Shown piece after piece: positions 31,523 to 60,445 of a DNA stretch of 64,000 bases; the first letter of the stretch is position 1; each line of letters opens with the position of its first letter. Below the pieces are notes generated by a model. That model was not told where the DNA came from. It saw only the letters and a program-made list of their open reading frames with translations, and did no database searches. The translations under genes and the position numbers were made by a program. The stretch covers positions 8,272,007 through 8,336,006 of the forward strand of contig CM055897.1 of NCBI GenBank assembly GCA_029582155.1, given 5' to 3'. The DNA is from Panopea generosa. Lineage: Eukaryota > Mollusca > Bivalvia > Adapedonta > Hiatellidae.

Positions 31523-31782
31523 TCAATATGTTGGAAAGTCAGGGTCCACAGTTCTTGCCCAGGCATGTAAACCACCAGTGATATCCTGAACAGTGATTTC
31601 ACTGTCTTCTAATCTTTGTTTTATTTTTTGCACAGCCAGCTGCGAATCATTGCCTCTCCGACACACACATATCACAGGTACGTCACTTTGTTTACCATTG
31701 TGGATGGTGTTAGCCAGGGAAGTAGCTTTGTCCACTATCTCTTCTATAGATTTATCTTTATGCACTTCACCTATTGGGATAT
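31523..31782 (-). CDS. MOCS3 exon 12 (rhodanese active site, stop)
   Basis: Begins [12 protein letters not shown] across the junction. Carries [18 protein letters not shown], with the catalytic cysteine in the CRRGNDS loop, and ends [19 protein letters not shown] followed by TGA. Confidence 0.95.
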
Positions 31783-34700
31783 CTTAAGTTAGGTTAAGAA
31801 AATTTATCAAACATCTGAAGATCTATATCAACTTCCAATGATGTGTCTTGGAACCTATTTCATAGTAAAGCATGGATTTCTTTACATGGCTTTCAGTCGA
31901 CCCCAAATAAATAGGGAATTCCATGTTAGTGTCTGATATAATCATCTTCATCAAGTGAGGCTTAGAAAAAACCATGACGAGGCTCTGCCTAGTTTTTGTT
32001 TATTTTCGTGCGGAACCTGATGAAGATGAGAATATAAGACACTAACATGGTATTCTCTTTATCATGTCAATATTTCTAATTCGTCTTTTTTATGAAACTG
32101 AAAATCAGCTTTAAACTTTTGTTATAGCCTGTAGAGTTTCTGTTCAGGATTTTATCATAACAATGCATTTATTTCTGTTGATAAACTGCCTGCCTGATAA
32201 ACATAGGTTTATCACATCAATGCAAGTTTATCAGGTACATGACATCATGTATAATCATGGAAGGAATATCTTCAGCAGGTTTGGCACGAAAAAAGCATGG
32301 ACATGGCAGAGCCTCATCCTGCTCCTTTTTTTTAAGCCTCACCTGATAAATTGATAATATGAGACACTAACATGGTATTCTCTATATACATAATAACGTC
32401 TAGTGCCTGATAAACTTGCATTGACATGACAAACCTATGTTTATCAGCAGAAATAAATGCATTGGCATAACAAAAGAGTATTGAAATAGCAAAGCAAAGT
32501 TTGCCTAACAGAATTAGTTTTTAATATGTAGTAATCTTCAAGGAATGTTATTATAAAATACAAAGAATTTTTTCCCCATCTTTAAATGACAGACACAAGT
32601 AAATAAAGCAATCTTTATATAAAGTTCCTAGTAAAATTTAAGCATGGTTTTTAAGACATTTTCTGAGAAAGTGCCACAAACTGACAATGTAAAATGATTA
32701 TAAATAACCCAATGTCACCTAAAAAACTTGTTTGCCATTTGGCCAGCAGAGCTAAACATTTATAAGTGGCAACTGCAATTGGTGAGAAAGAAACTATCTA
32801 AATACATATTTATGCAACAGAATACTTGTACAGGGTCGAGTTACACTAAACATCTGAATTTGAGATTTTCCTCAACTGTAACTTTTCTCAAAATGATTAC
32901 TTGGAACTCATAACACATCAAATGACCACACAGAATTTAAGTCAGAACAAATCTTTACTGGTCTGTATAGGATAACATATAAAATGATCAATATAAATCA
33001 AGTTATAGCATTTAAAATATATAAGATGAGGAAAATCTCAACTTGAGATGTATAGTAAAACTGGGGCCAGGTATCTGCTTTATCGATTGCATTCCTTCCC
33101 CAGTGTCTCAATTGCAATAAAACATATCAGATAGACAGGAGTTTGGAAGATCTTTTTTATGAAGTATAATGTCTGCTTTATTGTGACAATGTTATAGGAT
33201 ACTGATGTAGTCTGTGGGCAGATGACAAATCTCAGTTTCCACAGGCTGTCTCACGTCTACCAGAATGTGGGGAGTCTTGCTGTCTACCATACATTTGAAT
33301 TTCTGGAAAACAACAGAGAATTTATGTTAAACAAGTAAATTTGAATTTGAATATTTATCATCATTTTATGCCATTGAGGGCTAACAGACGTTCATAAATA
33401 ACTATTGAAAATGTAATTCTATGCACACTAAAATTTACTTCATGAACTTCTGGGAAACAACAGAGTTTATTTTAAACAAATAACTACTGAACATATATAA
33501 TCCAATGTACACTAAAACTTCTGGAAAACAACAGAGACTTTATTTTTGGAACATGCTATTCAATGTACAGTGAAGTAATTTTTATTCATCAATTACAATC
33601 ACGTATTAAATAACAAAACAGCGAACTAATACTGTCAACTGAAATGAGACTGTCAACCAGCCACTTTTATACTTTTAATATATTCGTCAAAATAGGGAGT
33701 GGCGCTATTAACAGACAAGTCTGTATTTTTTCATAGCCTTGATGGTCTTTCTTATTCAAATCCAAATTTTAAGGAAATTGCTATGATACTTTTTGAGAAA
33801 ATATGTCAAATATCAGGTACACAAATGTCAGGAGGTGGTTAGTTGTTCTGTTCAGTAGAAGTTCAAGGTTTTAATTTGGACCATCGCTAAATAAAAGTTT
33901 AACTGCTGAAACAAACCATATTATATATTATCTCATGTCAAATTTATAACCAGAGTCAGAAATATACAAAATGTTGTAAATCAGTCCAGTATGCAGTACT
34001 TCATTATGTATTATAGAACATTAGAAAACAATAAACGAAGATAATCATTTTTTTGGCCAATTTTGCATACATTTGCTATGCCAATAAAGTATTAAAAGAT
34101 AATGTTGATAATTTCACAAGACGTAGTATACAAAGATTAAAACTCCCATGGTTGAAAAAGGAAATAGTGCTTTTTTTTAATTTTCACACACAAACAAAAA
34201 TACACAGGCCATTGTACCGCATATAAGTTTAAATGAAAATTGTATGTGGCATTATTTCCTATTAACAACAAAGGTCATTAACTAACATATACTTTATGTT
34301 TGGGCCATTTGGACATCTGCCATTGCCTACAACTCTGCCAATATGTCAATTTGACTGGATATGGTTCAAAAGTTTTAACAATAACATTTTTATCTTAAAG
34401 TAATACACAGAGTAGCAAATCAAAGAAATATTAATCATATAAAAAATATCACTATAAACTAAATGCTATTTCTCTCTCATCCCCGGTAGACATCACATTT
34501 GCTGATATATCACTGGGGAGAATATAGAGGTTATTCAACTTGTTTTCCAATACTGAAAGATAATTAACCAGTTATTCATGAATGTGGTGTTGGGGAGTTG
34601 TGTCATGAATCATGAATAGATTCGCAGGGATATAAATTTGCAATATGGTTATAAACTGTAAACAAGTTATTGCAAAGTCATACATTTATGAGATCTGAAT

Positions 34701-37700: not shown

Positions 37701-40700
37701 CAATGAGTGGTTGCATAGTTATCTTAAACTTAAACGCAACTACTCAAAGTTTAACCAGGGTGTCTAAGTCCAAAAAGGGCAATAACTGTGCCAACTGCAA
37801 TCCAGAGTTATGGTTCTTGTCTCTGTGTGTTCCATTGATGATGGTGAACACACATGGGAAGTTTCATTCACATCCAAAGAGTGGTTGCATAGATATTTTA
37901 AACTTAAACGCAACTAAATGCAAAGTTTAACCTAGTGTTTATGTCCAAAAAGGGCCATAACCCTGCCAAAATGCAATCCAGAGTTATGGTTCTTATGTCT
38001 GTGTGTTCCATTGATGATGGTGAACACACATGCAAAGTTTCATTGACATCCAATGAGTGGTTGCATAGATAACTGAAATGCAAAAGTTTAACCTGGGTGT
38101 CTACAGACGACGCCGACGACGCCGGGGTCATGACAACAGCTCTCCTCTTCCTATGAGCTAAAAACCCATCTATACATGACAAAGTCACAGACCAGACACG
38201 AAATCTCACACAAACTCAAAGTGTTGTCAAACAAACTCAAATTGTGAACTTGACCTTTGAGGTACAGGTGTGGGTCTTACTAGCAACATGTCATGATGTT
38301 ATGTTGATCATTTGTAGCAAGTATCATTAAAATTCATCTATGCATGACAAAGTTACAGGCCGGACATGAAATATCACACAAACACAAAGTGAATTCAATC
38401 AAACTCAAATTGTGACCTTGATCTTTGAGGTAAGGGTGTGGGTCTTACTCCCGACACGTTGTCATGTTATATTGATCATTTTTAGCAAGTATTTATAAAA
38501 TCCATCAATGCATGACAAAGTTACAGGCTGAACACGAAATCTCACACAAACTCGAAGTGTTATCAAACAAACTCAAATAGTGACCTTGACCTTTGAGGTA
38601 CGGGTGTGGGTCTTACTTGCGACATGTCGTCATGTTATGTTGATCATTTGTAGCAAGTATCATAAAAATCCATCTATGCATGACAAAGTTACAGGCCCGA
38701 CACAAAATCTCACACAAATTCGAAATGTTGACAAATAAATTCAAATACAGTAGTGACCATGACATCTGAGGTACGGGTGTGGGTCTTACTCATGACACTC
38801 GTCATGTTATGTTGATCATTTGTAGTAAGTATCATAAAACTCCATCAATGCATGACAAAGTTACAGGCTGGACAAGAAATCTCACATAGACTCAAAGTGT
38901 ATTCAAACAAACACAAATTGTGACCTTGATCTTTGAGGTATGGCTGTGGGTCTTTCTCACGACACTTCGTCATGTTATGTTGATCATTTGTAGCAAATAT
39001 CAACAAAATCCATCTATGCATGACAAAGATACAGGCCGGACATGAAATACAGGATGGAAGGATGGATGGAAGAACAGGTGGAAGGACAGAAGGATGGACA
39101 GACACTGTGATAACTATATGCCACCCCAAAAATTTTTTTTGGGGGGGGTGGGGGGGGGCATAAAAATATGGGTAGCAGGGTGGGGGTCTTGGTTGGGCTG
39201 AGGCAGAAAAGTCTATTTAATAAGTCAAGGTCAGTGATGTAAACTTTTAAAATAAAAGCTTTGAAATAAATTCAAACCTGAGCTAAACAAAAAACTTTAA
39301 CCTAAGGTTTTAAAGCCCAAAGTATGGAAGTTTATGTAACTTAGCTACATACATTGTTTCTACATCATAATATAAATGTGTTTATGAAGTTTAGTCACTG
39401 TAACATGAGTTGTTTGTTCATAAACAGAGAAAAGGCTGAGCTAAACATAAATCTTTAACCAGCGGACGACGACGTCGATGACGTTGACGACGCCAGGGTC
39501 ATGACAATAGCTCTTCGTTTACAAAAAGACAAGCTAAAATTTAATTTCAGTGATTTAACTCAGTTTGCATCTGATTAAAATAATTTAATTATTTATTACG
39601 AATCGATTGTGAAACAAGTTATTACAACTTTGATAAATCATGCTTAAAATTTCCTGAGTAGAATAAGTACTAAGCATATCTTGCTCAAGGACACCACATA
39701 TAGCAGTGGTGGAGGATCGAACCCATGACCCCTAACCCCCGGATATCTACTACACACTCAACATATGTATAAATGTCACTGGCTATACCAAGTCACTGGG
39801 AAAAACAATTGTTTCTTGTAAACTAGTGTTTATATAATATACTTATAATCCTGCCATAAATATGCTAGACTCACCTTTACAGTTATTCTTTGATTTGTTT
39901 CTAAAACATTTATACTTTTATCCTGAAAATAACAAACAGTTATACATAAATTTGTATTTGACAGATTACATCAAACAAAACCAGAAGAGTTACTTCTATA
40001 AGAACTATATTTATATATATATACTGTTCTTTATATATACGACTTTTACTACAATAACTACCACCAATAAATGAAGGTAGCAGTTTGGAGATATTTGAAA
40101 CTTGGACTCAAAAGAAACTTCTATATATATATATATATATGTATATATGGGGAATCTGACATAAAATCTGGTTTAATAATTTACATTTTTGACACAAACG
40201 CTCGTATTTTGAAAATACCACTAATACCAATGTTCATCTTCCTATACTTGGCAATGTATAGTTTTATGAGTGCAATTTTTCTTGTGACAAAATGTATAAG
40301 GTTAATATTTCGATTTGTAGTTAAAAATAATTATATTTTACCTATTTTGGGTCTATCACATAATTTGACATCTTTGTATCTTGGAATGCACCCCTTGTTT
40401 ACAAATGGGTTCTTTTCCTATGTTTCCTAGTACAAAATGCCATTCAAGGAGGTTCACAAGTCATCAATTACATTTTAGATAATGGTCTGAGTGGTCTAAG
40501 GCGCCGTCTCAAGATCACTTACTTCTCACCGCTATGGTCATAGGTTTGAGTCATGCTCACTCCAAAATCTTTATGTGAGAAAGTTTCCAGTTACTTGCAG
40601 AAGGTTGTTGGTTCTACTCTGTCTGAATCAGTCTCAGATCTTCCTCCACAAGTAAAACTGAATATGCCATATATAAAATGTGTTGAAACATTTTAGATAA

Positions 40701-43700
40701 AGAAAAATAAGAACTGTCCACTGCTTGTTTAAAAAATTAATGGATTGAAGCTTGAATTCCAAATCAATAGGACTATAAATAATTAATTGATTTTATCACA
40801 TAATTTACGGTACAGGAGTGTAATAAACCCATGACATATTTTTGATATTATCCTAGTGTAATATCACTTCTGATTCATCGCTCAGTGTATAACTCAACTC
40901 TCATTGGTAAATTGCCAAAGGACTTTCCGACTTGCCCGATATATAAATGACGTTGATCTGTCATGGTTAAATGGCGTTATTTTAAGATGTTACATCATCG
41001 ATGACTCACGGATATTCATATGTCCGATTTTCTTTTGTTCCTTATAGAGGTAATCTACTGAATTAATGGTTAATGTAATTATTTCCTGAGTTCTGTGATG
41101 GAACATATCTTACATTCATTCTCATTTATATTTGAATTTTATCAAACTCGTTAGAAAAATGATATAATGCTCGGCAAAGCTTGTTTAATAAATTCAATAA
41201 TAAATAAGCACTCATGTAAGATCCTCTATAAATCAAGATGTTTCCACTATTTACTAGACTGATACCTATTGCCATTTTAAGATAGTTCCCCCCAAACTAA
41301 GATTCCAATTCACTATACTCCCTCTTTCTTTCAGAAAAACGTGACAATGTTGCTTTAAAAGAATAGCAGAAATACTCAATGACAATGTTGCTTTAAAAAT
41401 AATAGCAGAAATACTCAATGACAATGTTGCTTTAAAAGAATAGCAGAAATACTCAATGACAATGTTGCTTTAAAAGAATAGCAGAAATACTCAATGACAA
41501 TGTTGCTTTAAAGATAATAGCAGAAATACTCAATGACAATGTTGCTTTAAAAATAATAGCAGAAATATTCAATGACAATGTTGCTTTAAAGATAATAGCA
41601 GAAATACTCAAAGACAATGTTGCTTTAAAAATAATAGCAGAAATACTCAATGACAATGTTGCTTTAAAAATAATAGCAGAAATAGTCAATGACAATGTTG
41701 CTTTAAAAATAATAGCAGAAATACTCAATGACAATGTTGATTTAAAAATAATAGCAGAAATACTCAATGACAATGTTGCTTTAAATATAATAGCAGAAAT
41801 ACTCAATGACAATGTTGCTTTAACCCTACTTCATATAGACGCCTTTGGACACCTAATATAGAAGGCTTTTGAACTATTGGGTGAATTATATTTATATTAA
41901 CTGACAGAGTAGAAAAAAGTGCAGGAATTGTTCAGATTGCTTGTCTAGCAGTTTAACTATTACAAAGTTTTCAGTAATTTGAAAGGCATCGGCTCGAGTT
42001 TTGGGATCAAACCCGCAACCTCTGACATGAGCAGTCAACACTCTAGCCACTACACTATTGCCCCACTTCAGAAATAAACAGAAGTAGAATACAAAGTAAC
42101 TGTACAGGAGACAAGATTTTTGCTGTTTCATTTGCCGACTCAGGCTTACACAGACAACATTTTAATTACAATATAATGGTGCTAAATAAATAATAAATAA
42201 GAATTGTTGGTATAAACATTTTAAAAATAAATATATAAATGCACCTGACTGTAACAAGCACAGTTTACTCCCTTTGAAGTTAATTTACTTGGCACATGGT
42301 TAATTAACTTATCTTGAATGTTCAACAAATAAACGTGTATCATTTAATACTTTTTTTAAATAAGGTTTAGTTCCATATTCATTAATATATCCAGTTTTAT
42401 AAGTGGAGGAAGACCTAAGAATGGATCTGAATACAACCACTGTCCTTCAGCAGGCAACTGGCATACTTTTCAAAATATTGTTAATTGGTTGAGCAGGATT
42501 TGAGTCTATGACTTTAGTGTTGAGAGGGAAGTGATCTTGAGGCGTGTCTTAGACAACTTGGCAATGGAGGACCCTCTGTGTTTAATACTAATTATTGTCT
42601 TGAAAGCTGTAAATATTGTATAGATTTTAATTTCAAAAAAAAACATTTGGTTACACAAAATAGTTATCAAGATGTACACAGTAAGATAATACAACTCACC
42701 TTATCAGAAGCTCTAGCCCCACAGAATTGTTCATAATCAATCAAGCCTGTAATTGAAGGGTTGTCCCCACATACAGGACATTTAGGTTGTCTGCCCCGGA
42801 GACGTATTGTTCGAAACGTTCCGTCAAGACCATCAAACATCAACAGTTTCTGAGAGAAGGACGCTATTGTAGGTTAAGGATTTGCATGTTGGATTCGTGA
42901 TTCACAATTCATTTAAATATAATTGTAAATCAGTGGAATTATTTTGGATACAATTTACATCCACATTTTGTTATTTAACAGATTTTTTTTATTGTTCATA
43001 TATCAAACAAATAGATTCAAATACTGTGGATTCTTTTCAATAAATTTCACATCTTTATTTTTATCAATAGTTTTCGCATCTTTATTTCCATCACTTACAT
43101 AAAAGGATACTGTCCAACCCGGATGCCAGCTTGATAGCCTCTAGAGCTTGAAGACTTCCAATAATCCCAGGAACTGTAATAGAGCACCACATCTAGCTTA
43201 ATATAATAAACAAAAAGTACTAGAAGTTCATGACCTTGATGCACTCTCCTGATAGAATATGATTGGACTTTGACTGCCAGATAGAAATAAGCTATGGATT
43301 ATGTATAGTTCAATGGGTTTAACACCATTTTCAACATATTTAAAGTCATATATGGCATATATCTAGTTTTATTGGTGGAGGAAGAACTCAGAATGAATCT
43401 TAGTAGAACCACTGTTCATCCCCAAGTAACTGGCAAACTTTCTCACATAAAGTTTTTGGAGTGAGCAGAACTCGAACCTATGACCTTAGCTGTAAGAGGT
43501 AAGTGATCTTGAGACAGCACCCTAGACAGCTCGGTCACCAATAAAACATCAGTAAATGGCAAATGATACTTTTTAAATCTATTTAGTTGTAGTGGCCATT
43601 GGATTCTAGACCATGCAGATATTTCTTTAGGACCATTTAAGCATTATATACAAAATTCCTGTAAGATATCATGAAAAATGAACCAGTAGTTTTGAAGGAT

Positions 43701-46700
43701 TAGAACTCACAAAAAATGTTTATTGACAGACAAACAGATAAACATCGGAAAATGCACCAACGCATATAAATTATATTCTGAACATAAAACAAGGGAACTG
43801 TGTTGGGTATGGTACTATAAGAATCATTCTCTGGCAGAAAACTCCGTATCAGTGGATAATGTTTGGATGGTAGCAAGGCTCAGTGAAGTTACCATCAAAA
43901 CAAGTTATCCCCTGATATATATTCCAAGGGTCGAATGTTCAGTGACTGAAAAAAGAAAGTGTGAAAGATTCTTCTTTAGTTCTTAGCTAACTTTTTTATT
44001 TTACATGGATTAAGAAACAAGATATCACAACTTAGACAAATCTCGATCGAATTCTTACTGGATAGAACCAGAAATAATCATAAAAATTATGCAGATACAG
44101 TGTCTTGCCCAAGGACACTACACATGGTCTTGGAGGAGTATTTTGTATGTCAAGCACATTGAATAATTATTTTATTATCTATTGTACATCCCCTCGTACA
44201 TTTATACCAACATCAATGATGTTTAAAATAATTAGTCTCAAAATATAATTTAACTGACCTGGCCCCAGTTTCACTTATCATCTCAAGTTGAGATTTTCCT
44301 CACATCATTTATATTGATCATTTTTAATGATTTTTATTCTTTACTAATGAGTAACGGTTTGTTCCAACTTCCATTCTGTGTTGTCATTTATATGTTATGA
44401 GGTGAATTATCATTAAGTGTAACTGAAATTTTTGACTTAAGGACATCCTCATCTTGAGATGTTTAATGAAGTCATCCCTAGCATTATCTTTACAGAAGCA
44501 ACTTCAGATGAAACGTATAATACTCATTACTGGGTATTTGCAAACCTGGTAACTCTGATGCTTACAAACCTAGTAATTGCTTTGTTGTATGTGGAATGTT
44601 TAAGCCTGAATTACTTTGTTTTATTACATTTTTAGTCAGGCCTGGTTAGATTAGTCGGTAGCACCTATGACTAACAATCCAGGGGTCGAAGTTTGAATCT
44701 CTGTCCAGTCACAGTATCCGTGATAATTGATATACAACACTGCATCTCATTATTATTGTCTCTCATCACTGATTCAAATCATTAGTGGAAAAGTTGTCAG
44801 TTATTTGCAGAGATAGGTGTGCATGAGTACAGGCTAACCTTCCAGGATCCCAGGAAGCAGTGGTTCTTTTAACTCATCGTTTTTTAGCCCATGATGCTTA
44901 ATATTCAATCAATCAGTCAATAAATCAATACATATCTAATACAATGTTACATTTCAGTATTTTGGAAATTGTGGCAGGGCCAGTGGAACTTCCTTTAGTT
45001 AACAATTCATTCGTTGGTCAAGGCAATAAAATGTAATATAACTACAAATCTTAACAATAGAGTTCATCCTTAGGTTCAGTTGCCTGTAAATCATACCCCA
45101 TCCCCTAATTCTTGTTTTAAGAAAATATCCCCAATTGAAAATGAAGGGAAGAAATATTTTTAGGCATTATTATCGAAATTAAAAAAAAAATAATGGTTGA
45201 AAAGAAGAGTTTCATATGTGAAATTGTTTACCGTCACTAATCTGAATCATACACGCTAAAATACTGTTTCATGAAAAACAATTTATTCTGTTCATTACAG
45301 AATATATTCTTTACCACTTCCAATTTTAAAGTCTTTACAAAGAAAAAACAATGATTGACTTACTGACTCCAACTACGCCACCATCTGAACAATTAGTGAC
45401 TGTTTCTGGGGGTGGAGGTTTGGGGTAGAGACATCTATAACAGGGGCCACTGTTGTGATTATATATGGTCAGCTGTAATGTACAGTAGTTATACAAGTGA
45501 CAAAACAGGGGCCATCCTTGTGGTTAAATATGGTCAGCTGTTATGTACAGCAGTTACACAAGTGACAAAACAGGGACCATCATTGTGGTTACATATGGTC
45601 AGCTGTAATGTACAGAAGTTATACAGGTGACAAAACAGGAGCCATCATTGTGGTTATATATGATCAGCTGTAATGTACAGTAGTTATACAAGTGACAAAA
45701 CAGGGGCCACTGTTGTGATTATATATGGTCAACTGTAATGTACAATAGTTATACAAGTGACAAAACAGGGGACACATTTGTGGTTATATATGGCCAGTTG
45801 TAATGTACAGTGGTTAAACAAATGACAAAACAGGGGCCACCTTTGTGGTTATATATGGTAAGCTGTAATATACAGTAGTTATACAAGTAACAAAACAGGG
45901 GCACTGTTGTGGTTATATATGATCAGCTGTAATGTACAGTAGTTAAACAAGAAAACTAAACTGGGGCCACCATTGTGGTTATATATGGTTAGCTGTAATG
46001 TACAACAGTTATAAAAGTGACAAGACAGGGACCATCATTGTGGTTATATATGGTCAGCTGTAATGTACAGTAGTTATACAAGTGACAAAACAGGGGCCAT
46101 CATTGTGGTTATATATGATCAGCTGTAATGTACAGAAGTTTTACAAGTGACCAAACAGGGGCCATCATTGTGGTTATATATGGTTAGCTGTAAAGTACAA
46201 CAGTTATAAAAGTGACAAGACAGGGGCCATCATTGTGGTTATATATGGTCAGCTGTTATGTACAGTAGTTATACAAGTGATAAAACAGCGGCCATCATTG
46301 TGGTTATATATGGTCAGCTATAATGTACAGTAGTTATACAAGTGACCAAACAGGGGCCATCGTTTTGGTTATATATGGTCAGCTGTAATGTACAACAGTT
46401 ATAAAAGTGACAAGACGGCCCATCGTTGTGGTTATATATGGTCAGCTGTAATGTACAGTAGTTATACAAGTGACAAAACAGGGGCCATCATTGTGGTTAA
46501 ATATGGTCAGCTGTAATGTACAGTAGTTATACAAGTGACAAAGAAGGGGCCACATTTGTGGTTATTTATGATCAGCTGTTATGTGCAGTAGTTATACAAG
46601 TGACAAAACAGTGGCCATAGTTGTGGTTAAATATGGTCAGCTGTAATGTACAGTAGTTATACAACTAACAAAACAGGGGCCACTATTGTGGTTATATATG

Positions 46701-49700
46701 GTTAGCTGTAAAGTACAGTAGTTATACAAGTGACATAACAGGGGTCACTGTTGTGGTTATATATGGCCAGCTGTTATGTACAGTAGTTATACAAGTGACA
46801 AAATATGGGCCACTGTTGTGGTTTTATATGGTAAGCTGTAATGTACAGTAGTTATACAAGTGACTATTGTGATTATATATGGTCAACTGTAATGTACAAT
46901 AATTATACAAGTAACAAAACAGGGGCCACTGCTGTGGTTATTTATGGTACAGCTGTAATGTACAATAGTTATACAAGTGACAAAACAGGGGGCCACTGTT
47001 GTGGTTATATATGGTTAGCTGTAATGTACAGTAGTTATACAAGTGACAAAACAGAGGCCACTGTTGTGGTTATATATGGTCAGCTGTAATGTACAGAAGT
47101 TATACAAGTGACAAAACAGGGGCCACCATGGTGGTTATATACTGTCAGCTGTAATGTACAGTAGTTATACAAGTGACAAAACAGGGACGTTTGTTGTAGT
47201 TATATACGGTCAGCTGTAATGTACAGTAGTTGTACAAGTGACAAAACAGGGACCATCTTTGTGGTTATATACAGTCAGCTATAATGTACAGTAGTTGTAC
47301 AAGTGACAAAACAGGGGCCATCATTGTGGTTATATATGATCAGCTGTAATTTACAGTAGTTATAAAAGTAGCAAAACAGAGGTCATCATTGTGGTTATAT
47401 ATGGTCAGCTGTTATGTAAAGTGGTTATACAAGCGACAGACAGGGGCCATCGTTGTGGTTATATATGGTCAGCTGTATATACAGTAGTTATACAGGTGAC
47501 AAAGCAAGGGCCACTGCTGTGGTTATATACGATCAGCTGTAATGTACAGTAGTTATACAAATAACAAAACAGGAGCCATCATTGTGGTTAAATATGGTCA
47601 GCTGTAATGTACAGTAGTTATACAACTAACAAAACAGAGGCCACCGTTGTGGTTCTACATGGTAAGCTGTAAAGTACAGTAGTAATACAAGTGACAAAAC
47701 AGGGGCCAATGTTGTGGTTATATATGTTCAACTGTAATGTACAGTAGTTATACAAGTAACAAAACAGGGGCTACTGTTGTGATTATATATTGTCAACTGT
47801 AATGTACAGTTGTTATATAAGTAACAAAGCAGGGGCCATCATTGTGGTTATATATGGTAAGCTGTAATGTACAGTAGTTATACAAGTGACAAAACAGGGG
47901 CCACTGTTGTGGTGATATATGGTCAGCTGTAATTTGCAGTAGTTTAACAAGTAATAAAACAGGGGTCATCATTGTGGTTATATATGGTCAGCTATAATAT
48001 ACAGTGGTTATACAAGTGAAAAAACTGGGGCCACCTTTGTGGTTATATATGGTCAGCTGTAATGTACAGTATTTATACAAGTGACAAAACAGGGGCCACT
48101 GTTGTGCTTACATATGGTCAGCTGTAATGTACAGTAGTTTAACAAGTAACAAAACAGGGGCCATCGTTGTGGTTATATATGGTCAGCTGTAATGTACAAT
48201 AGTTATACAAGTGACAAAACAGGGCCACTGTTGTGCTTACATATGGTCAGCTGTAATGTACAGAAGTTTAACAAGTAACAAAACAGGGGCCATCATTGTG
48301 GTTATATATGGTCAGCTGTAATGTACAGTAGTTATACAAGTAACAAAACAGGGGCCATTGTTGTGGTTATATATGGTCAGCTGTAATGTACAGTGGTTAT
48401 ACAGGTGACAAAACAGGGGCCACTGTTGTGGTTATATGTGGTCAGCTGTAATGTACAGTGGTTATACAGATGACAAAACAGGGGCCACTGTTGTGGTTAT
48501 ATATGGTCAGCTGTAATGTACAGTTGTTATACAAGTAACAAAAACAGGGGCCATCGTTGTGGTTATATATGGTCAGCTGTTATGCAAAGCAGTTATACAA
48601 GTGACAAAACAGGGGCCATCATTGTGGTTATATATAGTCAGCTGTAATGTACAGAAGTTATACAGGTGACAAAACAGGAGCCATCATTAAGATTATATAT
48701 GATCAGCTGTAATGTACAGTAGTTATACAAGTGACAAAACAGGGGCCACTGTTGTGATTATATATGGTCAGCTGTTGTGTACAGTAGTTATACAAGTGAC
48801 AAAACAGGGGCCATCATTGTGGTTATATATGGTCAGCTGTAATGTACAGTAGTTATACAAGTAACAAAAACTGGGGCCATCGTTGTTGTTATATATGGTC
48901 AGCTGTAATGTACAGAAATTATACAAGTGACAAATCAAGGGCCATCTTTGTGGTTATATATGATTAGCTGTAATGTACAGAAGTTATACAGGTGACAAAA
49001 CAGGGGCCATCCTTGTGGTTATATATGGTTAGCTGTAAAGTACAGGGGCAACCATTGTGGTTATATATGGTTAGCTGTAAAGTACAGTAGTTATACAAAT
49101 GGTAAAACAGTTGCCACCATTGTGGTTATATATGGTCAGTTGTAATGTACAGTAGTTATACAAGTGTAAAAACAGGGGCCACATTTGTGGTTATATATGA
49201 TCAGTTGTAATGTACAGTGGTTAAACAAGTGCAAAACAGGGGCCACCATTGTAGTTATATATGATAAGCTGCAATGTACAGTAGTTATACAAGTAACAAA
49301 ACAGGGGCCACTGTTGTGATTATATATGATGAGCTGTTATGTACAGTAGTTAAATAAGTAACAAAACTGGGGCCACCATTGTGGTTATATATGGTCTACT
49401 GTAATGTACAACAGTTATAAAAGTGACAAGACAGGGGCCATCATTGTGGTTATATATGGTCAGCTGTAATGTACAGTAGTTATACAAGTGTCAAAACAAA
49501 GACCACCTCTGTGGTTATATATGGTCAGCTGTAATGTACAGTAGTTATATAAGTGACAAAACAGGGGCCATCATTGTGGTTATATATGGTCAGCTGTAAT
49601 GTACAGTAGTTATACAAGTGACAAAACAGGGGCCATCATTGTGGTTATATATGGTCAGCTGTAATGTACAGTAGTTATACAAGTAACAAAACAGGGGCCA

Positions 49701-52700
49701 CCATTATGGTTATATATGGTCAGCTGTAATGTACAGTAGTTATACAAGTGACAAAACAGGGGCCATCATTGTGGTTATATATGGTCAGCTGTAATGTACA
49801 GTAGTTATACAAGTGACAAAACAGGGGCCATCATTGTGGTTATATATGGTCAGCTGTAATGTACAGTAGTTATACAAGTGACAAAACAGGGGCCATCATT
49901 GTGGTTATATATGGTCAGCTGTAATGTACAGTAGTTATACAAGTGACAAAACAGGGGCCATCATTGTGGTTATATATGGTCAGCTGTAATGTACAGTAGT
50001 TATACAAGTAACAAAACAGGGGCCACCTTTGTGGTTATATATGGTCAGCTGTAATGTACAGTGGTTATACAAGTGACAAAATCATTCTGACAATCAATTT
50101 CTTAATAAACATACAATACCTCCATGTGTATTGCACAGATGATAACTGGCTGAATTAGGTTTACAACATTGAAAATGTTTAAATCTTTACTTGAAACTAT
50201 TAGTATGACTATATTTTACTGTCAGAAATTTTCAATAAAACTAGAAATGTGTCCATAGGACATGGATGCTCCTGCTATATGTTTAACAAACTTTATCAAA
50301 AATTAAATTGAAATAGGGCATTAACTTGACTGATGCTGACAAATAACAAAATTGACCTGTATTTTATAATTATACAGCTCCACACAGAATATTAATTAAA
50401 TACACAACCATTTCAGAAGTCCTTCAAGAGAAACAAGTTTGATGGGTGGACAGACTGATGGACCAATGGACAGGGGTAACGCTAAATGCCCCTTCACTAT
50501 TCTATGAATGGCGGGGCATACTTATCAACTTGTCAGGAGATGGAACTGATCCCTCTTCATAATCTAAGGGAGGTAAATGCCACAAAACTGAATTTAACTA
50601 ACTCTTAGAGTTACGGGGTATGATATATAAAATCTATTTTAAGTTCCTGAAACAAAACTGATTTGATGTAAGTAACCGCAATAAATCGTTTCCGGTTAAT
50701 TCATATTCAATTGGATATTTTTATTCATCACTTTATACAGTCTGACAGGTTCATGTACATTTTAAAACTTTTCCCTCATAATATTTCAGTGGTTCGTTTC
50801 AACTAAATGTCATTTTCATTAAAACTTATTCATCAGCAATTATTTATTTTCACAATTATTGTTTCCCATAATATGATTTCATTCATTTCTTTAAAAGTCG
50901 TGTTAAAAAAGATCAGAAATTGTAAACAAGAGGCCCAAGAGGGCCTGAGGACACTCTACTGACTCATAGTGGCTATAGCACTTTTTGAAATTTCATGATA
51001 TTTCCCTCTTTAGAGGCCGTCTTAACAACTTATGGATAAATAACCCCACCACACCCATACTGAACAAAAAGTTAATAGCTATGAAAATACTTAAAATTCC
51101 CGTACAATTCATCTGTAAAAAAACAATAGTCCCTGTACAGAACCCTTATACAACCCAGCCCCTTGATTTGTCAGGACTTCAATCACTCACTCTTAGGGAT
51201 TTGTTACGAGCAGATATGCTTTAGATTTTAGATAGTTTTTTGTATACATTGATGCGAAAAAATGAAAAAATATCAGTTTTCCCTATAATATTCCTATGTA
51301 AAAGTAAAAGTCACCTTGCAGGGCCAAATATATCTCAACCCCTTGATATGCAGAATCTTAAATCCTTGCTGATATAAGGATAACTTAAATCAAATATGAA
51401 CTAGTTTGACTGAAACGTTATTGAGAGGAAGATTAATGAAAAAAATCCATATTTTAACCGTATTGCCCCCACCCCCTGGCCCCTTATGGAAATTTAATCC
51501 TCTTTATTGAACAAAATTAAATTAACTATTACTAGACAATGCTTTAGATCTCAAACTGAGCAACATATTTACACAAATGGAAGAAAAAATGAGACTCTTT
51601 CATTTTCCCATAGTATTCCTGTAAAATTCAAAGTCACCTTACAGAGCCTCTGTACATTTCAATGTCCCTTGATTTGTGAAAACTTCAAACTCTTAATTAT
51701 AAGGATAATTTATATAAAATATGAACAAATCTGACTGACCGGAAAAGGCGGCTGTCGAGAAGAAGATTTATGACAATGTTTAATTTTATTCATTTGGTGA
51801 CCCCACCTGGCACCTTTTAGAAAGTCAATCCTTCATATCAAACAAAATCTTATTTGTAATGACTAGAAGATGCTTCAAAACTCGAAATGAATAAAAAAAT
51901 AAAAAAAATGGATGAAAAAATGAGCATTTTCGCAATGTATTCCTATATATAAAACTCAAAGTCACCTTACAGGGCCCCTATATATAAAAGCCCCTTGATT
52001 TGTACAATCTTTAAAACCATACTCATTGGGATAATCTATATCAATTATGAACAAATTTGACTGACCGATTGTTGAGAAGAAGTTTTTTTAATTTTTTCTA
52101 TATTAACCCTTTTTTGACCCACCCTGACCCCTTATGGAAAGTCAATTCTCCTTATTGATCCAAATCTTATTTCCTATGACTAGCTGATATTTCAGAACTC
52201 AAACTGAATAATAATTTTGCCTAAATGGATGAAAAATTGAGAATTTTCCATTTTCCCATAGTATCCCTATATAAAATTCTAAGTCCCCTTTCAGGGTCCC
52301 TATAAATATTAGCCCCTTAATTCTTATCTCCATTCAAACCCCTACACATAGGGATTATATATGCCAAATATGAACAAATCTGACTTACCGGTTCTTAAGA
52401 AAACGATTTTTGTTTTTTTCAATTTTTACCCTTTTCAGGCCCCTCCTGACCCCTTAAGACAATGGAACCCAGCCATTTTTACAAATCTGAACCTCCTTCA
52501 CCAAACAATGCTTTTGTGAAAATATAGGAAAAAACAGTTCCTTTTTAAAAAAAACTTTTATTATAATGACATGTGTCCCCCAATTGAACCCTCAGGGCAG
52601 AGTCATTTTTAACCCCAGGGAAACCATTTGAACAAATCTAACAGAACTATAGTTGGTTTTCATTACTACATAAACATTTTGAAAATCTGTTGGGTGGTTC

Positions 52701-55700
52701 ATGAGAAGAAGATTTTTAGGTTTTCAACTTTTTTTAGTAATGGTGGACATCTTGAATTTCAGATCGAAAAAAAAATCTTCTGTATAGTTTCCTATGCAAT
52801 AGAAACATCCATGTGAAGTTTGAGTTTAATTGGCCTAGTGGTTTCAGAGAAAGTGCTACTAAAGGATGACAGACAACAGACATGGACAATGCGCCATCGT
52901 ATAAGTCCTTATGGCCTTTGGCCAGTAGAGCTAAATATGGATAACATCCATAAATTATTCCCATAATTTTAGTAAGAGGAACTTATTGTTTCCCTATGTC
53001 TCTGGTTTTAACAATATTTTATTCACAATATATATGGGAGACATACACTGAATATACACTTTAAGTAACAACTTGTCAAATGAAAAGATTCAGAAGAAAG
53101 CCATAATAGAGAATATGTACCTCTTTCCTATAATTGTTTCCTGTTGATGCACATAATTTTTTAAAAACTTTGAACAATGCAAGGATTTCACATTTCAATA
53201 CATGATAAAAGGAGAAAAGAAATGAATTCAACATACCTGCCCTTCAAACCTGAGGGCACTTCCGGACACTAGAGGTTTACCAGTAAGTACACATGCATCA
53301 TTGAGTAGATATCTTGTAGCAACATTGTCGGTGGCATCAAGAACTATATCATAACTGACAGAGGTTCAGGAACATAATGTCAATTGATTAATGCTATCAT
53401 CTACCCCGATATATATACAATACAATATCTATGTACATGTATTATATGTGACTGTAAAGGGTGCACAACAAATTCGAACAATGCATTATTTTGCCCTTTT
53501 TATCACTCTGAAAAAATACTCAAACAATATTATAAAGTCGTCAATCTTAAAAGGGTGGGCACCTCTTTTAAAAAATTAATTTTATTTGGAAATATATTTA
53601 TAACCTGTACATTTTAATTGGAAATATATTTATAACCTGTACATTTTAATTGGAAATATATTTATAATCTGTACATTTTAATTGGAAATATATTTATAAC
53701 CTGCATTTTAATTGGAAATATATTTATAACCTGTACATTTTAATTGGAAATATATTTATAACCTGTACATTTTAATTGGAAATATATTTATAACCTGTAC
53801 ATTTTAATTGGAAATATATTTATAACCTGTACATTTTAATTGGAAATATATTTATAATCTGTACATTTTAATTGGAAATATATTTATAACCTGTACATTT
53901 TAATTGGAAATATATTTATAACTTGTACATTTTAATTGGAAATATATTTATAATCTGTACATTTTAATTGGAAATATATTTATAACCTGTACATTTTAAT
54001 TGGAAATATATTTATAATCTGTACATTTTAATTGGAAATATATTTATAACTTGTACATTTTAATTGGAAATATATTTATAACCTGTACATTTTAATTGGA
54101 AATATATTTATAACCTGTACATTTTAATTGGAAATATATTTATAATCTGTACATTTTAATTGGAAATATATTTATAACTTGTACATTTTAATTGGAAATA
54201 TATTTATAACCTGTACATTTTAATTGGAAATATATTTATAACCTGTACATTTTAATTGGAAATATATTTATAACATGTACGTTTTAATTGGAAATATATT
54301 TATAACCTGAAGTTGCCAAGTGGTCTAAGATGCCGTCGTAAAAAGTTACCTCTCACCACTGAAGTTGTAAGTTCAAGCCTCACTCCCAATCACTTTATGA
54401 GAGAAAGTTTGCCAGTTAATTGCAGAAGGATGGTGGTTTTACTCAGATTCATTCTGAGGTCTTCCTCCACCAAAATACATTGGACATGCCATATATAACC
54501 TGAAATGTTCATTCTGAGGTCTTCCTCCACCAAATTACATTGGATATGCTATATATAACCTGAAATGTTCATTCTGAGGTTTCCCTCCACCAAAATACAT
54601 TGGACATGCCATATATAACCTGTCATGACGTGTAAAAATAATGTTAAATCCCATTCGAAACAAATTTTATATGGAATAATTTACAATATTACACTGTTGT
54701 TTCAAACTTTGAAGACAAAAAATGAGTAGATATGTGACTTGAAGGATACTTGTTTATAATTTGTATGGCATTTGAGCTGTCCAACTGGAGGTGGTAAGGT
54801 TCACATGTTACAAACGAATTCAAGCTGGAAAAAAGTTCAATTCATTATTTAAATACAATTCATGTATTTTAATGCTTCTATTTTCAGAATATCAGAACTG
54901 CCTGACAATTAACATTTAATTGATTATTAAGATTCTTTTTTAATTTCTGATAATGAATACCTAGATGTCTTAAATAAAGAATTCAGTCAGAATTTTACCA
55001 AATACCTCTCATGGTTTAATTGGCGGTTATTTAACAATGCCTTCAAATACTATATGCTCTGTAATCTTTGGCACAAACTTTCTTGAATTAATTATTTTTT
55101 AGTGGCTGAAAACTGCAGTGGATGAATATACTTTCAAGTTCTAACAATTATTTTATAGGTTACTTGTGGAAAGACTGTTGTTCTATTCAAGATTCATTCT
55201 AAAGTCTTTGTCCACCAACTGAACTGGATATTCCATTTTATCATGTCAACGCATTCATTTCTAAAACTGCCTCCCTAATAAACATACGTTTATCACATCA
55301 TTGCAAGTTTATCAGGCACATGAAGTCATTATGTATACTTTATATGCCGTTATGATTATATACTTATACATTTTGACCTGGAGGGAACTACTTTTAACCT
55401 TATTTAAAATGAATAAAAAACAAACTAAAAATATTGACCTGATAAATAGAATACCATGTTAATGTCTAATATTATCAGCTTCATCAGGTGAGGCACAAAA
55501 AAAACAAAGAATTGGCAAAGCCCCGTCCTAGTTTTTTTGTAAGTCTCACCTGATAAAGTTGATTATATCAGACACTAACATGGTATTCTCTATATATAAC
55601 CCCAGCCAGCATATTAAGTAGGTTAAATATTTTAATTCAAAGGACTAAAGGTTCTGAGAGTTGCTATTTGTATTTTTTAATACTTTGCATCATTTTTATA

Positions 55701-58700
55701 CCATCAAGGGCTAACAGACAATCAACTAATCTAACCACTGTTTTCTGGAATCCTGGAAGATTGATCAGTACCCGAGCTCACCCATCTCCATAAGTTGACA
55801 ATGTGCTTACATTTACATTAACACAAAATCATTCAGATTGAACAACGTTACTTACTCTGTGCAGGCGCTGGCAGCAGAAACACTTTTGTTTACCCCGACC
55901 CGAGACTCGGTGTGGAGAATCTGACGATGAAGGTTACTTAAGTCTACCTGGTCGTAGTCCACAATTCCCAGTCTACCTGCAATTTTATACATATTAAGTT
56001 GCATGCTAAATTCCATTAAGATAATTTAGTTTAGCCTAATTATAAAAGAATGGATCATCAGCTTCTTATTACATGTACCTGTATTCGGATAGTCAACTTG
56101 TCTGCCTCAGGTGACATGAAATAAAAAAATGTAAAATGTTTCCTTAGAGATGTGTACAATGCTGCACTGAAGTTGGTGGAGAAGAAACATTGCAACCCGA
56201 TTTTTAACATTTCTAACCGAACCTACTGGATTGGACTATTTTTACATCATTTCTTTTCATTTGCATATAGTTCTCCATGTGGATCTCTACTGTGAAGAAG
56301 ATTATACTTCCAAAATTCATAAATATATGACCTTAACATCTGTCATTTGTAACCAGTCTCCTGTCTGACATCAGCAGTGATATTATACGATCTTATTTTT
56401 AAGATCTAAGTTTTAACAACCTGTATTAGAGACCACCTGAATTAGTAAACAGTTATTCTGAGACAACCTGACATAGGCCACCAGAGTGGCTGTTTAAATA
56501 TTTCACAATGTAACTGTATATATCTAGTACTTATATTTGTTAATTTTGTTCTATGATGTGTTAGGATTGTTTAAAACATGTTAAGTGCACTGGACATATA
56601 CATGTGTACCAATGTTGATATCACTTAACATGTTTTTTTCTTTAAACTTCTATGTCAACAACATTTGCTTTCAAACAAATTTTACTTGTAAGACAGTAAT
56701 ATCTACAATAATTCCTTTTTTATCCAGCATCATTATATTCATTAATGACAACAACTCATTTTTTCAAATATTGATTTTTTTCCTCAAAAGTTAGTATGTT
56801 TGGTTATAAAAAAATGGTGTCATATCTTGTTATATAGTAGAAAAAAGAGATATGAGTAAAGAATGATCAATTTACACCATTTTGTTTATTTTAAAGTACC
56901 GTTAGTATAGGATGATTAATAAAGGCCTTTATTTCTGTTTATCTGCAATTCTTACCAATACCAGCTGCAGCTAAATAGACAGCAGCCGGACATCCCAGCC
57001 CTCCAGCACCGACAATCAATACGGACTTGTTTCCCAATGATACCTGACCTAAACAAAATAAAAATTAATTTATTAAACTACAGATTAGAATTTTCAATGT
57101 TATCAGTGTTTTTAAAATAGTTGTTATTAGACGCCTTTTGAACAACCATCATGTAAATAAGCTCAGCCTTAAGACAGGGTTGATAACTGTGTCAGCAAAT
57201 GGATGTTATAGCTGTCAATTATTCATTTAATGCAATTTTTAATAACCACAGATCAGATTACATTTATATTAAAATCCTTTCAACTAAACTAATTCGATCA
57301 ATTACTTGTGAGAACAAGTACAAGCAAACAACAGGACTGACATTATTATATATACATCAGAGAATATTTCTGTTGGATAATGACACTGTTTGATTGAAAC
57401 TACAGTCAAAATACTCTAAATCAAACATTTATACAGCTACATGATATAATCGGTCATAAAAAAAAACAGTAAAATATTGAAAAACATGCATTATACTACC
57501 AATGTAGAATGTCCTACCATTAAGTTACACTATGGTCCTCCGTGGCAGAGTGGTCTAAGGCACCATCTCAACATCAATTAACTCTCACTGCTGAGGTTGT
57601 AGGTTCAAGTCACACTTGGTCCAAAAGCTTTATGTGAGAAAGTTTGCTAGTTACGTGCTAAAGACATTGGTACTACTCAGATTCAGTCTGACGTGTTCCT
57701 ATGGCACTGAAACTGAATATGCCATATGTGATCTAAAATGTGTTGAAAATGACATTAAAACAACGAGACAATATAACCGCCAAGTTGCCACATACTGAAA
57801 TACACTTACCTTTGACACCCAGTTCTGGTAAAATCAGCTGTCTGCTGTATCGAGATATTTCAGCATTTGTTAGTTTTTGTTTTAGCTGTGAGCATTCTGT
57901 CTTCTTGGAAACAACGTCTTCAGTTACACATTCTGGTAAGCAACTTAACAGTTTCTGAAGATGAAAAAGTTAAAATGTATTCAGAAGTTATTTTAGTCTA
58001 CTTTGATTTTTGTGCACACTTCTTAAATTGATTGTTTATTTTCAATCTTTTGATGCATTTTTTGCATTCTGGGGGAATTTTCAGATATAATTATTCATGA
58101 GAAAATATGGAAGCCTAGGTATCGCCACTGCCATTATCAAACTAACATTATATGGAAGTTAAATTTTAGGATATAATCACCTAGAACATTAAATTATATT
58201 GAAAGCTTCATTTTGGTCCAAAAAAAATCTTGATGGTAATTTTACTGAAATAATAATACGAAACTCTAGACTACACACTAAAGTGACAACAGTCATGCAT
58301 CCAAGTACTAACACCGTACTTAGTCTCTGGGCATATCCTGCCCAATTCCAAGGATAGATGGATTTGTACAGACGCAGGTTCAAAAGTTACTTCCGACACC
58401 ATTAAAATTACAGCGGTCACCCATTCAAGTACTTACTCATACTTCATTACTTAACTTCCAATAAAGCTGGTGCACTTAAGCCATATCATTATAAAACCTA
58501 GCTCAACAGCAAGGCTGTTGTACTTGTGACCTGTATATCTATATATACATTCAATACTGATTTAAAACTGCTGGAGAAATTCTATGAACATAAAAGCTGC
58601 TTCATAGGACATATGAACTCGCAACCGCCTGAACCCTAGCAGAGTGGTTGGACATCTAACATAAACTGGCCGCTAAATGAAATCATACCTAAATAAATAT

Positions 58701-59471: not shown

Positions 59472-59804
59472 ATGGCTCGTACAAAACAAATTCAAAAGCA
59501 TTCAGTGCCCCGACCTGGATGTGCGTATATTAGACATATTCTTGCAACAAAAAGAGCACAGCACAAAGTCAAAGTAGAAAAGGCTAGAAAACGGTATAAT
59601 AAAAAGGAAGTGACGGGTGGAATTAAAAAAGCCAAGCTATGGCTGCCAGGGACTAAAGCTTTAAGTGAAATAAGGAAATTCCAGCGATCGACGGACCTCA
59701 TTTTAAAAAAGATACCATTCCAGAGACTTATTAAGGAAATTGTTTGTGAAATATTCCAAGATAAAGGTTATAGATTTCAATCCGCTGCGCTGGGTGCAAT
59801 ACAG
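59472..59804 (+). CDS. H3 variant exon 1
   Basis: 111 codons: N-terminal tail, alpha-N, alpha-1, loop 1 and part of alpha-2. Ends at GCAATACAG|gtttgt, the H3 ALQ position. Confidence 0.88.
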
Positions 59805-60445
59805 GTTTGTTTAAAAATGAGTTCTGCATCTAAATTAGTCGATTCTAAGTTTGTGGATAATCGGACAATTTAATCATTGAACGGTTATAGGTAATGCGGG
59901 TAATTACATTATTCTTATACTATTTATTGGGAATCTATACCTGCCTTTAATTACCTGTATCGAGGAGACAAAGTGGAAAATATCTTTACAACAGTTCTCA
60001 AATAAACACAAATGAACTGAACACTGAAGTAGTGTCCCGAGTACAATGGGACAATAGAAACACACGCAAACATTGTCACATATAAATGCCAATTTATCCA
60101 CACATATACGTTTCTTACCTCAGGAAGATTTTGAGCGTGATTTAGTGTAAGAACAGATTTGACAATCAATTTAAAATAAATCAGTTAAAACAATAGATCT
60201 ATAAATTCATTCTTTTATTACAATATTTTACTGTCTTAATCATTCAATAACATACTTTCTCACCAACTGTATTTTCATTGTGTTTGTTACTATAGGGGGC
60301 AGCTGAAAGCTATTTGGTGTCTCTGTTCGATGATACCAATTTGTGCGCCATACACGCAAGGAGGGTTACCATAACAACCAAGGACATGCAGCTTGCCAGG
60401 CGCATCCGAGGTGACTCCATGTCCACATATAAAGACTTGTCATAA
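59472..60445 (+). CDS. Divergent histone H3 variant (CENP-A-like candidate), 2 exons
   Basis: Exons 59472-59804 and 60296-60445 join in phase 0 (CAG|gtttgttt ... tactatag|GGG) to give 160 aa; canonical H3 has 136. Residues 1-6 are MARTKQ as in H3, then the tail diverges: the K9 position is histidine, S10 is kept, and about 20 lysine-rich residues are inserted before VTGGIKKAK. The histone fold follows: [71 protein letters not shown], then a novel tail SMSTYKDLS. The stretch between the conserved EI and RFQ is ten residues, against eight in H3 and ten in human CENP-A. The H3 K56 position is arginine. No histone stem-loop follows the stop, consistent with a polyadenylated variant. A centromeric role is inference. 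The Kozak context aaaATGG supports this start over an in-frame ATG at 59343. Confidence 0.88.
60296..60445 (+). CDS. H3 variant exon 2
   Basis: 49 codons plus TAA: the rest of alpha-2, loop 2 and alpha-3, with near-canonical [14 protein letters not shown] and QLARRIRG. This half is much closer to ordinary H3 than exon 1. Confidence 0.9.

What the first reader, a model, noticed from the sequence alone, without database searches (positions are those of the whole stretch)
45438..50088. MOCS3 exon 7 is preceded by about 71 tandem copies of its own 3' splice site and exon start
The 65-bp unit is not generic satellite. On the MOCS3 strand it contains 'gtacattacag|CTGACC' and the first ~33 coding bases of exon 7 ([12 protein letters not shown]), then re-enters the intron-like part. 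The transcript therefore carries dozens of near-identical acceptors before the authentic one. Using the nearest decoy would add 65 nt, shift the frame and give TAC AGC TGA, a stop codon exactly at the unit junction. Either the true site is marked in another way, or decoy splicing feeds nonsense-mediated decay and tunes MOCS3 output. I know of no described case of a minisatellite seeded by an intron-exon border on this scale.
Basis: partly seen in the sequence, partly recalled or inferred. Interest (0 to 1): 0.93.

Follow-up and report, generated by a model that had tools for sequence, protein, structure and literature searches.

The report
Splice-site minisatellite inside an animal gene
In one animal gene the stretch where an intron ends and an exon begins has been copied 71 times in a row, leaving dozens of look-alike splice sites in front of the real one; such arrays are a known but little-studied oddity, and this genome appears to hold several more.

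Summary
A MOCS3 gene with an open frame (12 exons, 472 aa, minus strand, the only copy found in its 1.47 Gb genome) has exon 7 at 45472-45364. Directly upstream, 45439-50081 holds 71 tandem 65-bp copies of the last 31 intron bases plus the first 34 exon bases. AG is intact in 68 of 71. Use of any of them is predicted to put a stop codon inside the retained array, at least 105 nt before the exon 7/8 junction. The unit was found only at this locus, so it was seeded from exon 7. The claim that no such case is described is wrong: it fits the 'mirages' of amphioxus (tandem duplications of intron-exon borders in Adh3, globins, troponin C, PGBD5), and human border repeats are in print. Tuning by nonsense-mediated decay is neither shown nor excluded; no RNA was available. 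The wider result came from a survey: 7 of 98 other conserved exons in this genome carry an array across a splice border (5 donor, 2 acceptor). In the 68 with long flanks, 6 were seen against about 2 expected under random placement. I judge it a tolerated mirage minisatellite, large in copy number, in a genome where mirages look common.

The parts
45439..50081 (-). Mirage minisatellite: tandem 65-bp copies of the intron 6 / exon 7 border (31 intron bases + 34 exon bases per unit); 71 decoy borders. The last 34 bases (45439-45472) are the authentic exon 7 head
   Evidence: TRF; unit split; border alignment; found only here in the genome
45364..45472 (-). Authentic MOCS3 exon 7 (109 nt), acceptor tacattacag|CTGACC, donor GAGTCA|gtaagt; its first 34 nt are the exonic part of the repeat unit
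   Evidence: homology across the exon 6-7 junction to Uba4
49919..49983 (-). One consensus-type unit (unit 3) in the most homogeneous, exon-distal block; units 2-11 average 97.2% identity to consensus
48707..48771 (-). Unit 22, whose exonic 34 bases are identical to the authentic exon 7 head
53237..53354 (-). MOCS3 exon 6 (ends RFEGQ, donor CAG|gtatgt), upstream partner of exon 7; intron 6 is 7764 nt
59222..59344 (-). MOCS3 exon 1 (coding part, from ATG)
57810..57954 (-). MOCS3 exon 2
56956..57048 (-). MOCS3 exon 3
55856..55976 (-). MOCS3 exon 4
54750..54824 (-). MOCS3 exon 5
43111..43173 (-). MOCS3 exon 8; a second donor (gtaagt) 12 nt further on would keep the frame
42700..42863 (-). MOCS3 exon 9
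39875..39922 (-). MOCS3 exon 10
33203..33302 (-). MOCS3 exon 11 (rhodanese domain)
31523..31782 (-). MOCS3 exon 12 (rhodanese domain, stop codon)

Best explanation
It is a mirage minisatellite: the end of MOCS3 intron 6 and the start of exon 7 were duplicated in tandem and then expanded and partly homogenised to 71 copies, probably by unequal exchange or slippage. The cell tolerates it. All copies lie upstream of a complete border, so the authentic acceptor can still be joined to exon 6 and the copies leave with the intron. Shown from sequence: the anatomy, the origin from exon 7, the open frame, the single locus, shared variants between array and exon start. Inferred: the copying mechanism, and that the authentic site wins mainly by exon definition, being the acceptor nearest to exon 7's donor (exon 7 is 109 nt with the true site; 174, 239, 304, 369 nt with the four nearest decoys). 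Some decoy splicing followed by nonsense-mediated decay is likely but need not be regulatory.
For: Array, unit split and border match. 10 of 10 protein matches in the genome at this locus (the tool scores best candidates only); 472-aa frame without internal stop, all 11 introns GT-AG; ThiF and rhodanese domains; Uba4 homology across the exon 6-7 junction. Unit at one locus only: 72 of 72 matches. Decoy exon heads vary like non-coding DNA by types: 44 nonsynonymous variant types seen against 31.2 expected at the intronic rate, 13 synonymous against 10.4. Seven other border-spanning arrays in 98 surveyed exons. Amphioxus mirages with regular splicing reported.
Against: No RNA was examined, so which acceptor is used is not shown. 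By sequence the authentic acceptor does not stand out: rank 20 of 72 on a recalled matrix, 47 decoys score at least as well; and 6 of 317 GT sites in the array score above the exon 7 donor (4.96) on a recalled donor matrix, so decoy cassette exons are conceivable. The last 12 intron bases are the second most conserved of 65 twelve-base windows, which could hint at constraint, although an exonic window ranks first. Counted by copies, variants lean to synonymous (68 to 127, N/S 1.87 against 3.71 expected); one inherited variant in 26 units contributes much of this. In human genes, repeats at exon-intron boundaries are reported to alter splicing (PMC2812944), and the amphioxus paper itself allows cryptic use.
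Confidence: 0.77

Rival explanations
1. Decoy acceptors are used to a regulated extent; every decoy gives a premature stop, so array length or trans factors tune MOCS3 output through nonsense-mediated decay or intron retention.
For: 68 of 71 decoy AGs intact; all 71 predicted to give a stop at least 105 nt upstream of the exon 7/8 junction; 47 decoys score at least as high as the authentic site; the acceptor end of the unit is among its most conserved stretches. Decoy sites that promote intron retention are discussed in papers seen as a listing only.
Against: A frameshifting insert would usually give a stop, so this is not specific. AG retention (rank 5, with ties, of 64 dinucleotides) is not exceptional. 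Amphioxus mirages are reported not to disturb regular splicing.
Confidence: 0.13
2. Exon-intron borders are hot spots for the birth of tandem arrays in this genome, for example through breaks or template switching linked to transcription or splicing, and the MOCS3 array is one product. This adds to the best explanation rather than replacing it.
For: 6 of 68 exons with 1.5-kb flanks carry a border array against a mean of 1.93 when arrays are shifted at random, 21 of 2000 shifts reach 6. Repeat with other cut-offs: at least 3 copies, 5 seen, mean 1.44, 65 of 5000; at least 5 copies, 5 seen, mean 0.87, 8 of 5000.
Against: Small sample of three protein families in one genome; exon ends approximated by profile matches; cut-offs chosen after the first arrays had been seen; two near-identical locus pairs are in the sample (L027/L028, L070/L071; none carries an event). 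Three other MOCS3 intron arrays tested do not match borders.
Confidence: 0.35
3. The array is a dispersed satellite or transposon that happened to land at exon 7 and supplies the exon start.
For: Tandem arrays are abundant in the window.
Against: The unit matches only this locus (repeat counts there are lower bounds), and its exonic bases encode a MOCS3 segment that lies in the alignment with Uba4.
Confidence: 0.02
4. Assembly artefact.
For: Long tandem arrays are hard to assemble; the copy number may be inexact.
Against: Units differ from each other (mean pairwise identity 85.8%), which mis-assembly of one copy would not produce.
Confidence: 0.03

Closest known systems
Mirage minisatellites of amphioxus: Adh3, globins BflGb6 and BflGb9 (PMC3087553, passages); troponin C and similar repeats in PGBD5 (PMC3902484, one passage)
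   Same: Minisatellite-like tandem duplication of an intron-exon border; acceptor or donor side; many copies carry splice signals; authentic border kept; homogenisation among units
   Different: 71 copies of 65 bp here against 6 and 3 units of 150-160 bp in the two BflGb6 haplotypes; copy numbers of the other mirages were not seen; another animal genome; splicing not tested here
Internal tandem repeats at exon-intron boundaries of human genes in segmental duplications (PMC2812944, passages)
   Same: Minisatellites located at exon-intron boundaries
   Different: On average 30-bp units repeated 4 times; described as generating novel introns and alternative splicing; in recent paralogues, not a single-copy gene
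Human IFI6 (6-16) minisatellite with multiple splice donors (recalled; only papers on the gene appeared in the listing, not read)
   Same: Minisatellite that repeats a splice site next to the authentic one
   Different: Donor side, about 12-bp unit and few copies (recalled)
Intron gain by tandem genomic duplication (PMC4974935, listing only)
   Same: Tandem duplication that includes splice signals
   Different: Described as making a new intron; none is evident here

Membership tests
Mirage minisatellite | Minisatellite-like tandem duplication | tested here: met
   65 bp x 71 copies
Mirage minisatellite | Unit spans an exon-intron border of the host gene | tested here: met
   31 intron + 34 exon bases of MOCS3 intron 6/exon 7
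Mirage minisatellite | Copies lie beside an intact authentic border | tested here: met
   Exon 7 continues the open frame between exons 6 and 8
Mirage minisatellite | Many copies keep AG/GT splice signals | tested here: met
   AG in 68 of 71 decoys
Mirage minisatellite | Concerted evolution among units | tested here: met
   Homogeneous distal block; authentic exon head identical to unit 22. No tree was built
Mirage minisatellite | Length instability between alleles or cells | not testable with these tools
   One assembly only
Mirage minisatellite | Does not disturb regular splicing | not testable with these tools
   No RNA data
NMD-coupled splicing switch | Alternative splice choice leads to a premature stop | tested here: met
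   All 71 decoys, predicted only
NMD-coupled splicing switch | Alternative transcript is made and regulated | not testable with these tools
   No RNA data
Dispersed satellite or transposon-borne repeat | Copies at several loci | tested here: not met
   72 of 72 matches at one locus (the tool says that repeat counts are lower bounds)

The most novel reading that the evidence does not exclude
In this genome exon-intron borders are preferred birthplaces of minisatellites, so that several percent of exons carry mirages. The arrays then feed variants back into the coding start or end of exons by gene conversion, making border arrays a steady source of both splice-site noise and amino-acid change.
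Probability: 0.3. Interest if true: 0.82.

Novelty: new member of a known kind. Interest (0 to 1): 0.58.

Why it matters
It is a natural test of how the spliceosome picks one acceptor among 72 similar ones, with a predicted frame and stop for each. The survey suggests that such arrays are common in this genome, which would move mirages from an amphioxus curiosity towards a general process that shapes exon ends and perhaps makes new introns.

Tried and rejected
Dispersed satellite: rejected, the unit matched one locus only. Pseudogene or second MOCS3 copy: rejected, the 472-aa frame is open and all 10 matches are at this locus. RNA folding that hides decoys: exon 7 with about three upstream units folds no better than shuffles (z -0.86, 41 of 200 shuffles as good); the whole array was not folded. 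Other arrays in MOCS3 introns as mirages: three of about ten tested, none above the highest of its shuffles. Telling the authentic acceptor by a matrix: failed, rank 20 of 72 (matrix values recalled and approximate). Coding constraint on decoys: copy counts and type counts disagree; I prefer type counts because copies inherit variants. From the mirage count I dropped an ATG microsatellite overlapping exon L041 and a 14-bp x 2.0 repeat in L050 (both; below the period cut-off). Literature: nine searches; in the titles and abstract starts listed I saw no border minisatellite in a mollusc and no MOCS3 case, but the papers listed were not read apart from PMC3087553, PMC3902484 and PMC2812944 (passages), and most subscription papers, the original Adh3 mirage paper among them, are not held. 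The species was not identified; my impression of a bivalve is untested.

Full report
WHAT IS THERE. TRF reports one array at 45439-50081, period 65, 71.0 copies. Read on the minus strand, each unit is TTGTCACTTGTATAACTACTGTACATTACAG|CTGACCATATATAACCACAATGATGGCCCCTGTT or a variant of it: the end of an intron joined to the start of an exon. A wraparound alignment gives 71 copies of this border upstream of one more, at 45472, where the sequence leaves the repeat and runs on as exon.

THE GENE. I built a MOCS3 model on the minus strand: 12 exons, 1419 nt, 472 aa, no internal stop, all 11 introns GT-AG. The first try had stops in exon 11 because its ends were wrong; they were corrected. Exon 8 has a second possible donor 12 nt further on in the same frame. 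Pfam gives ThiF (E 2.7e-83) and rhodanese (E 7.4e-7). PDB relatives are Uba4, MoeB and the MOCS3 rhodanese domain; the Uba4 alignment runs through the exon 6-7 junction (EGQ|LTIYN...GPCYRC). In the window's own genome (1.474 Gb, 39 contigs) all 10 protein matches lie at this locus. The gene therefore looks intact and single-copy.

ORIGIN OF THE UNIT. A search of the genome with the unit gave 72 matches, all in this array (the tool warns that counts are lower bounds and that very common words are skipped). The unit aligns to the exon 7 acceptor border with score 128, against a best of 29 in 200 shuffles. Three other arrays in MOCS3 introns, of about ten that TRF lists there, stay at or below the highest of their shuffles for every border. 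The exonic part is MOCS3 coding sequence by homology. The array was therefore seeded from the exon 7 border. At the array ends the flanks read ...GAATGATTTTGTCAC and CCTGTTATAG..., and the unit junction reads CCTGTTTTGTCAC; two shared T bases would fit a duplication by slippage or template switching (inference).

ARRAY EVOLUTION. The 71 full units average 91.7% identity to the consensus and 85.8% to each other. The exon-distal units 2-11 average 97.2%, the next ten 88.0%. The authentic exon head matches the consensus at 30 of 34 bases but is identical to unit 22 at 34 of 34, so variants move between the array and the coding exon, or were copied out of it. One visible effect is a codon that is Ser in the exon and Asp in the consensus.

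SPLICING CONSEQUENCES. AG is intact at 68 of 71 decoys, and 29 of 71 decoys are identical to the authentic site over 18 bases. On a simple recalled matrix the authentic site ranks 20 of 72; 47 decoys score as well or better. For each decoy I translated the predicted transcript: all 71 meet a stop inside the extended exon 7, at least 105 nt before its end; 46 of 71 stop 22 codons after exon 6, and 39 of 71 stop as AGC TGA. It is a prediction; no RNA was available.

IS THERE SIGN OF FUNCTION? The exonic part of the copies shows 44 nonsynonymous variant types where 31.2 are expected at the intronic rate, and 13 synonymous where 10.4 are expected, so no coding constraint by that count. Counted by copies, synonymous variants look favoured (68 synonymous, 127 nonsynonymous, N/S 1.87 against 3.71). 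Column 21 alone holds 26 copies of one synonymous variant, so I do not take this as selection, but it is a result the other way. The last 12 intron bases are the second most conserved of 65 windows, close behind an exonic window; the AG and the CA before it rank 5 and 6 of 64 dinucleotides, with ties. This is compatible with weak constraint or none. Exon 7 with about three upstream units shows no unusual RNA folding (z -0.86).

SURVEY OF THE SAME GENOME. To ask whether MOCS3 is alone, I searched the genome for ThiF, kinesin and myosin head exons. I examined 68 loci with 1.5-kb flanks: 8 of the 12 ThiF matches outside MOCS3 (15 matches in all, 3 of them MOCS3), 30 of 126 kinesin and 30 of 81 myosin matches, each time the best-scoring ones that the tool cut out. 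I then examined 30 further kinesin matches with about 0.35-0.4-kb flanks, taken from the next 33 rows of the list; three rows were skipped, before their sequence was seen. Searches with PF00005 and PF00069 gave places but no sequence, so they are not in the count. Arrays crossing the end of the matched coding stretch were found in 7 of 98: donor side L010 (39 bp x 13.4), L042 (43 bp x 35.4), L061 (41 bp x 5.2), L079 (34 bp x 5.2), L089 (108 bp x 3.0); acceptor side L066 (44 bp x 5.2), L078 (60 bp x 2.6, overlap just 8 bp, the minimum). Reading them shows exon ends followed by gt... or preceded by ...cag in most copies; the exact donor of L042 is the least clear. Random circular shifts of the arrays within the 68 longer loci give a mean of 1.93 loci with such an overlap against 6 seen; 21 of 2000 shifts reach 6. 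A repeat with other cut-offs gave: no copy limit 6 seen, mean 1.99, 57 of 5000; at least 2.5 copies 6 seen, mean 1.65, 30 of 5000; at least 3 copies 5 seen, mean 1.44, 65 of 5000; at least 5 copies 5 seen, mean 0.87, 8 of 5000. This is suggestive, not proof: the sample is small, exon ends are approximated by profile matches, the cut-offs were set after the first arrays had been seen, and two near-identical locus pairs are included.

COMPARISON WITH WHAT IS KNOWN. [quoted passage not shown] 6 and 3 units in two haplotypes) and BflGb9 (157 bp). [quoted passage not shown] PMC3902484 (one passage) describes repeats over splice sites in PGBD5 and cites troponin C. In human segmental duplications, repeats at exon-intron boundaries can generate alternative splicing through novel introns (PMC2812944, passages). 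The MOCS3 array meets the mirage features that sequence can test; instability and harmless splicing were not testable. It differs in scale from the globin cases and in host. The primary Adh3 paper was not available to me.

MECHANISM. My preferred reading is that the array is tolerated because one complete border stays in place, nearest to exon 7's donor; the usual preference for pairing an acceptor with a nearby downstream donor (exon definition, established knowledge) then favours 45472. Against a simple version of this, 6 of 317 GT sites in the array score above the exon 7 donor on a recalled matrix (up to 6.0 against 4.96; the exon 6 donor scores 10.18), so small cassette exons are conceivable. 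In the unit consensus the only strict yUnAy branch-site match (motif recalled) is CTGAC at the start of the exonic part, kept in pattern in 67 of 71 units; the copied coding sequence might serve as branch region for the next acceptor. That is speculation.

VERDICT. Observation confirmed, interpretation partly supported, a new and large member of a known kind. A regulatory NMD device is untested and not needed to explain the anatomy. The wider point, that border arrays look common in this genome, deserves an annotation-based genome-wide count.

Noticed in passing
window, introns after exons 5, 8 and 11: first intron bases 54749, 43110, 33202 (minus strand): Three MOCS3 introns, as modelled, begin gtatcct, and their acceptors are preceded by tcctgaacc (before 53354), tccttaacc (before 42863) and ttcttaacc (before 31782). 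This looks like the U12-type (minor spliceosome) pattern as I recall it. Three such introns in one gene would be unusual.
   Followed up: partly
window 59472-59873, plus strand: An open frame starting MARTKQ with a Pfam core-histone match (E 5.8e-14) lies head to head with MOCS3 exon 1: a divergent histone H3-like gene or remnant.
   Followed up: partly
L010, L042, L061, L066, L078, L079, L089: Border-spanning tandem arrays in other conserved genes (E1-type ThiF, kinesin, myosin) of the same genome; L042 has about 35 copies.
   Followed up: partly
window 53579-54309 and 41342-41823: Two further minisatellites inside MOCS3 introns 5 and 9 (32 bp x 22.9, 39 bp x 12.4) that match no MOCS3 border above the highest of their shuffles.
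   Followed up: yes
window about 40530-40680, 42390-42580, 43350-43540, 54300-54470: Similar stretches recur in both orientations (seen by eye) and look like a dispersed short interspersed element.
   Followed up: no
window 45439-45472 and array: The start of exon 7 carries a Ser codon shared with a minority of units while the consensus carries Asp; array variants may have rewritten the coding sequence.
   Followed up: partly
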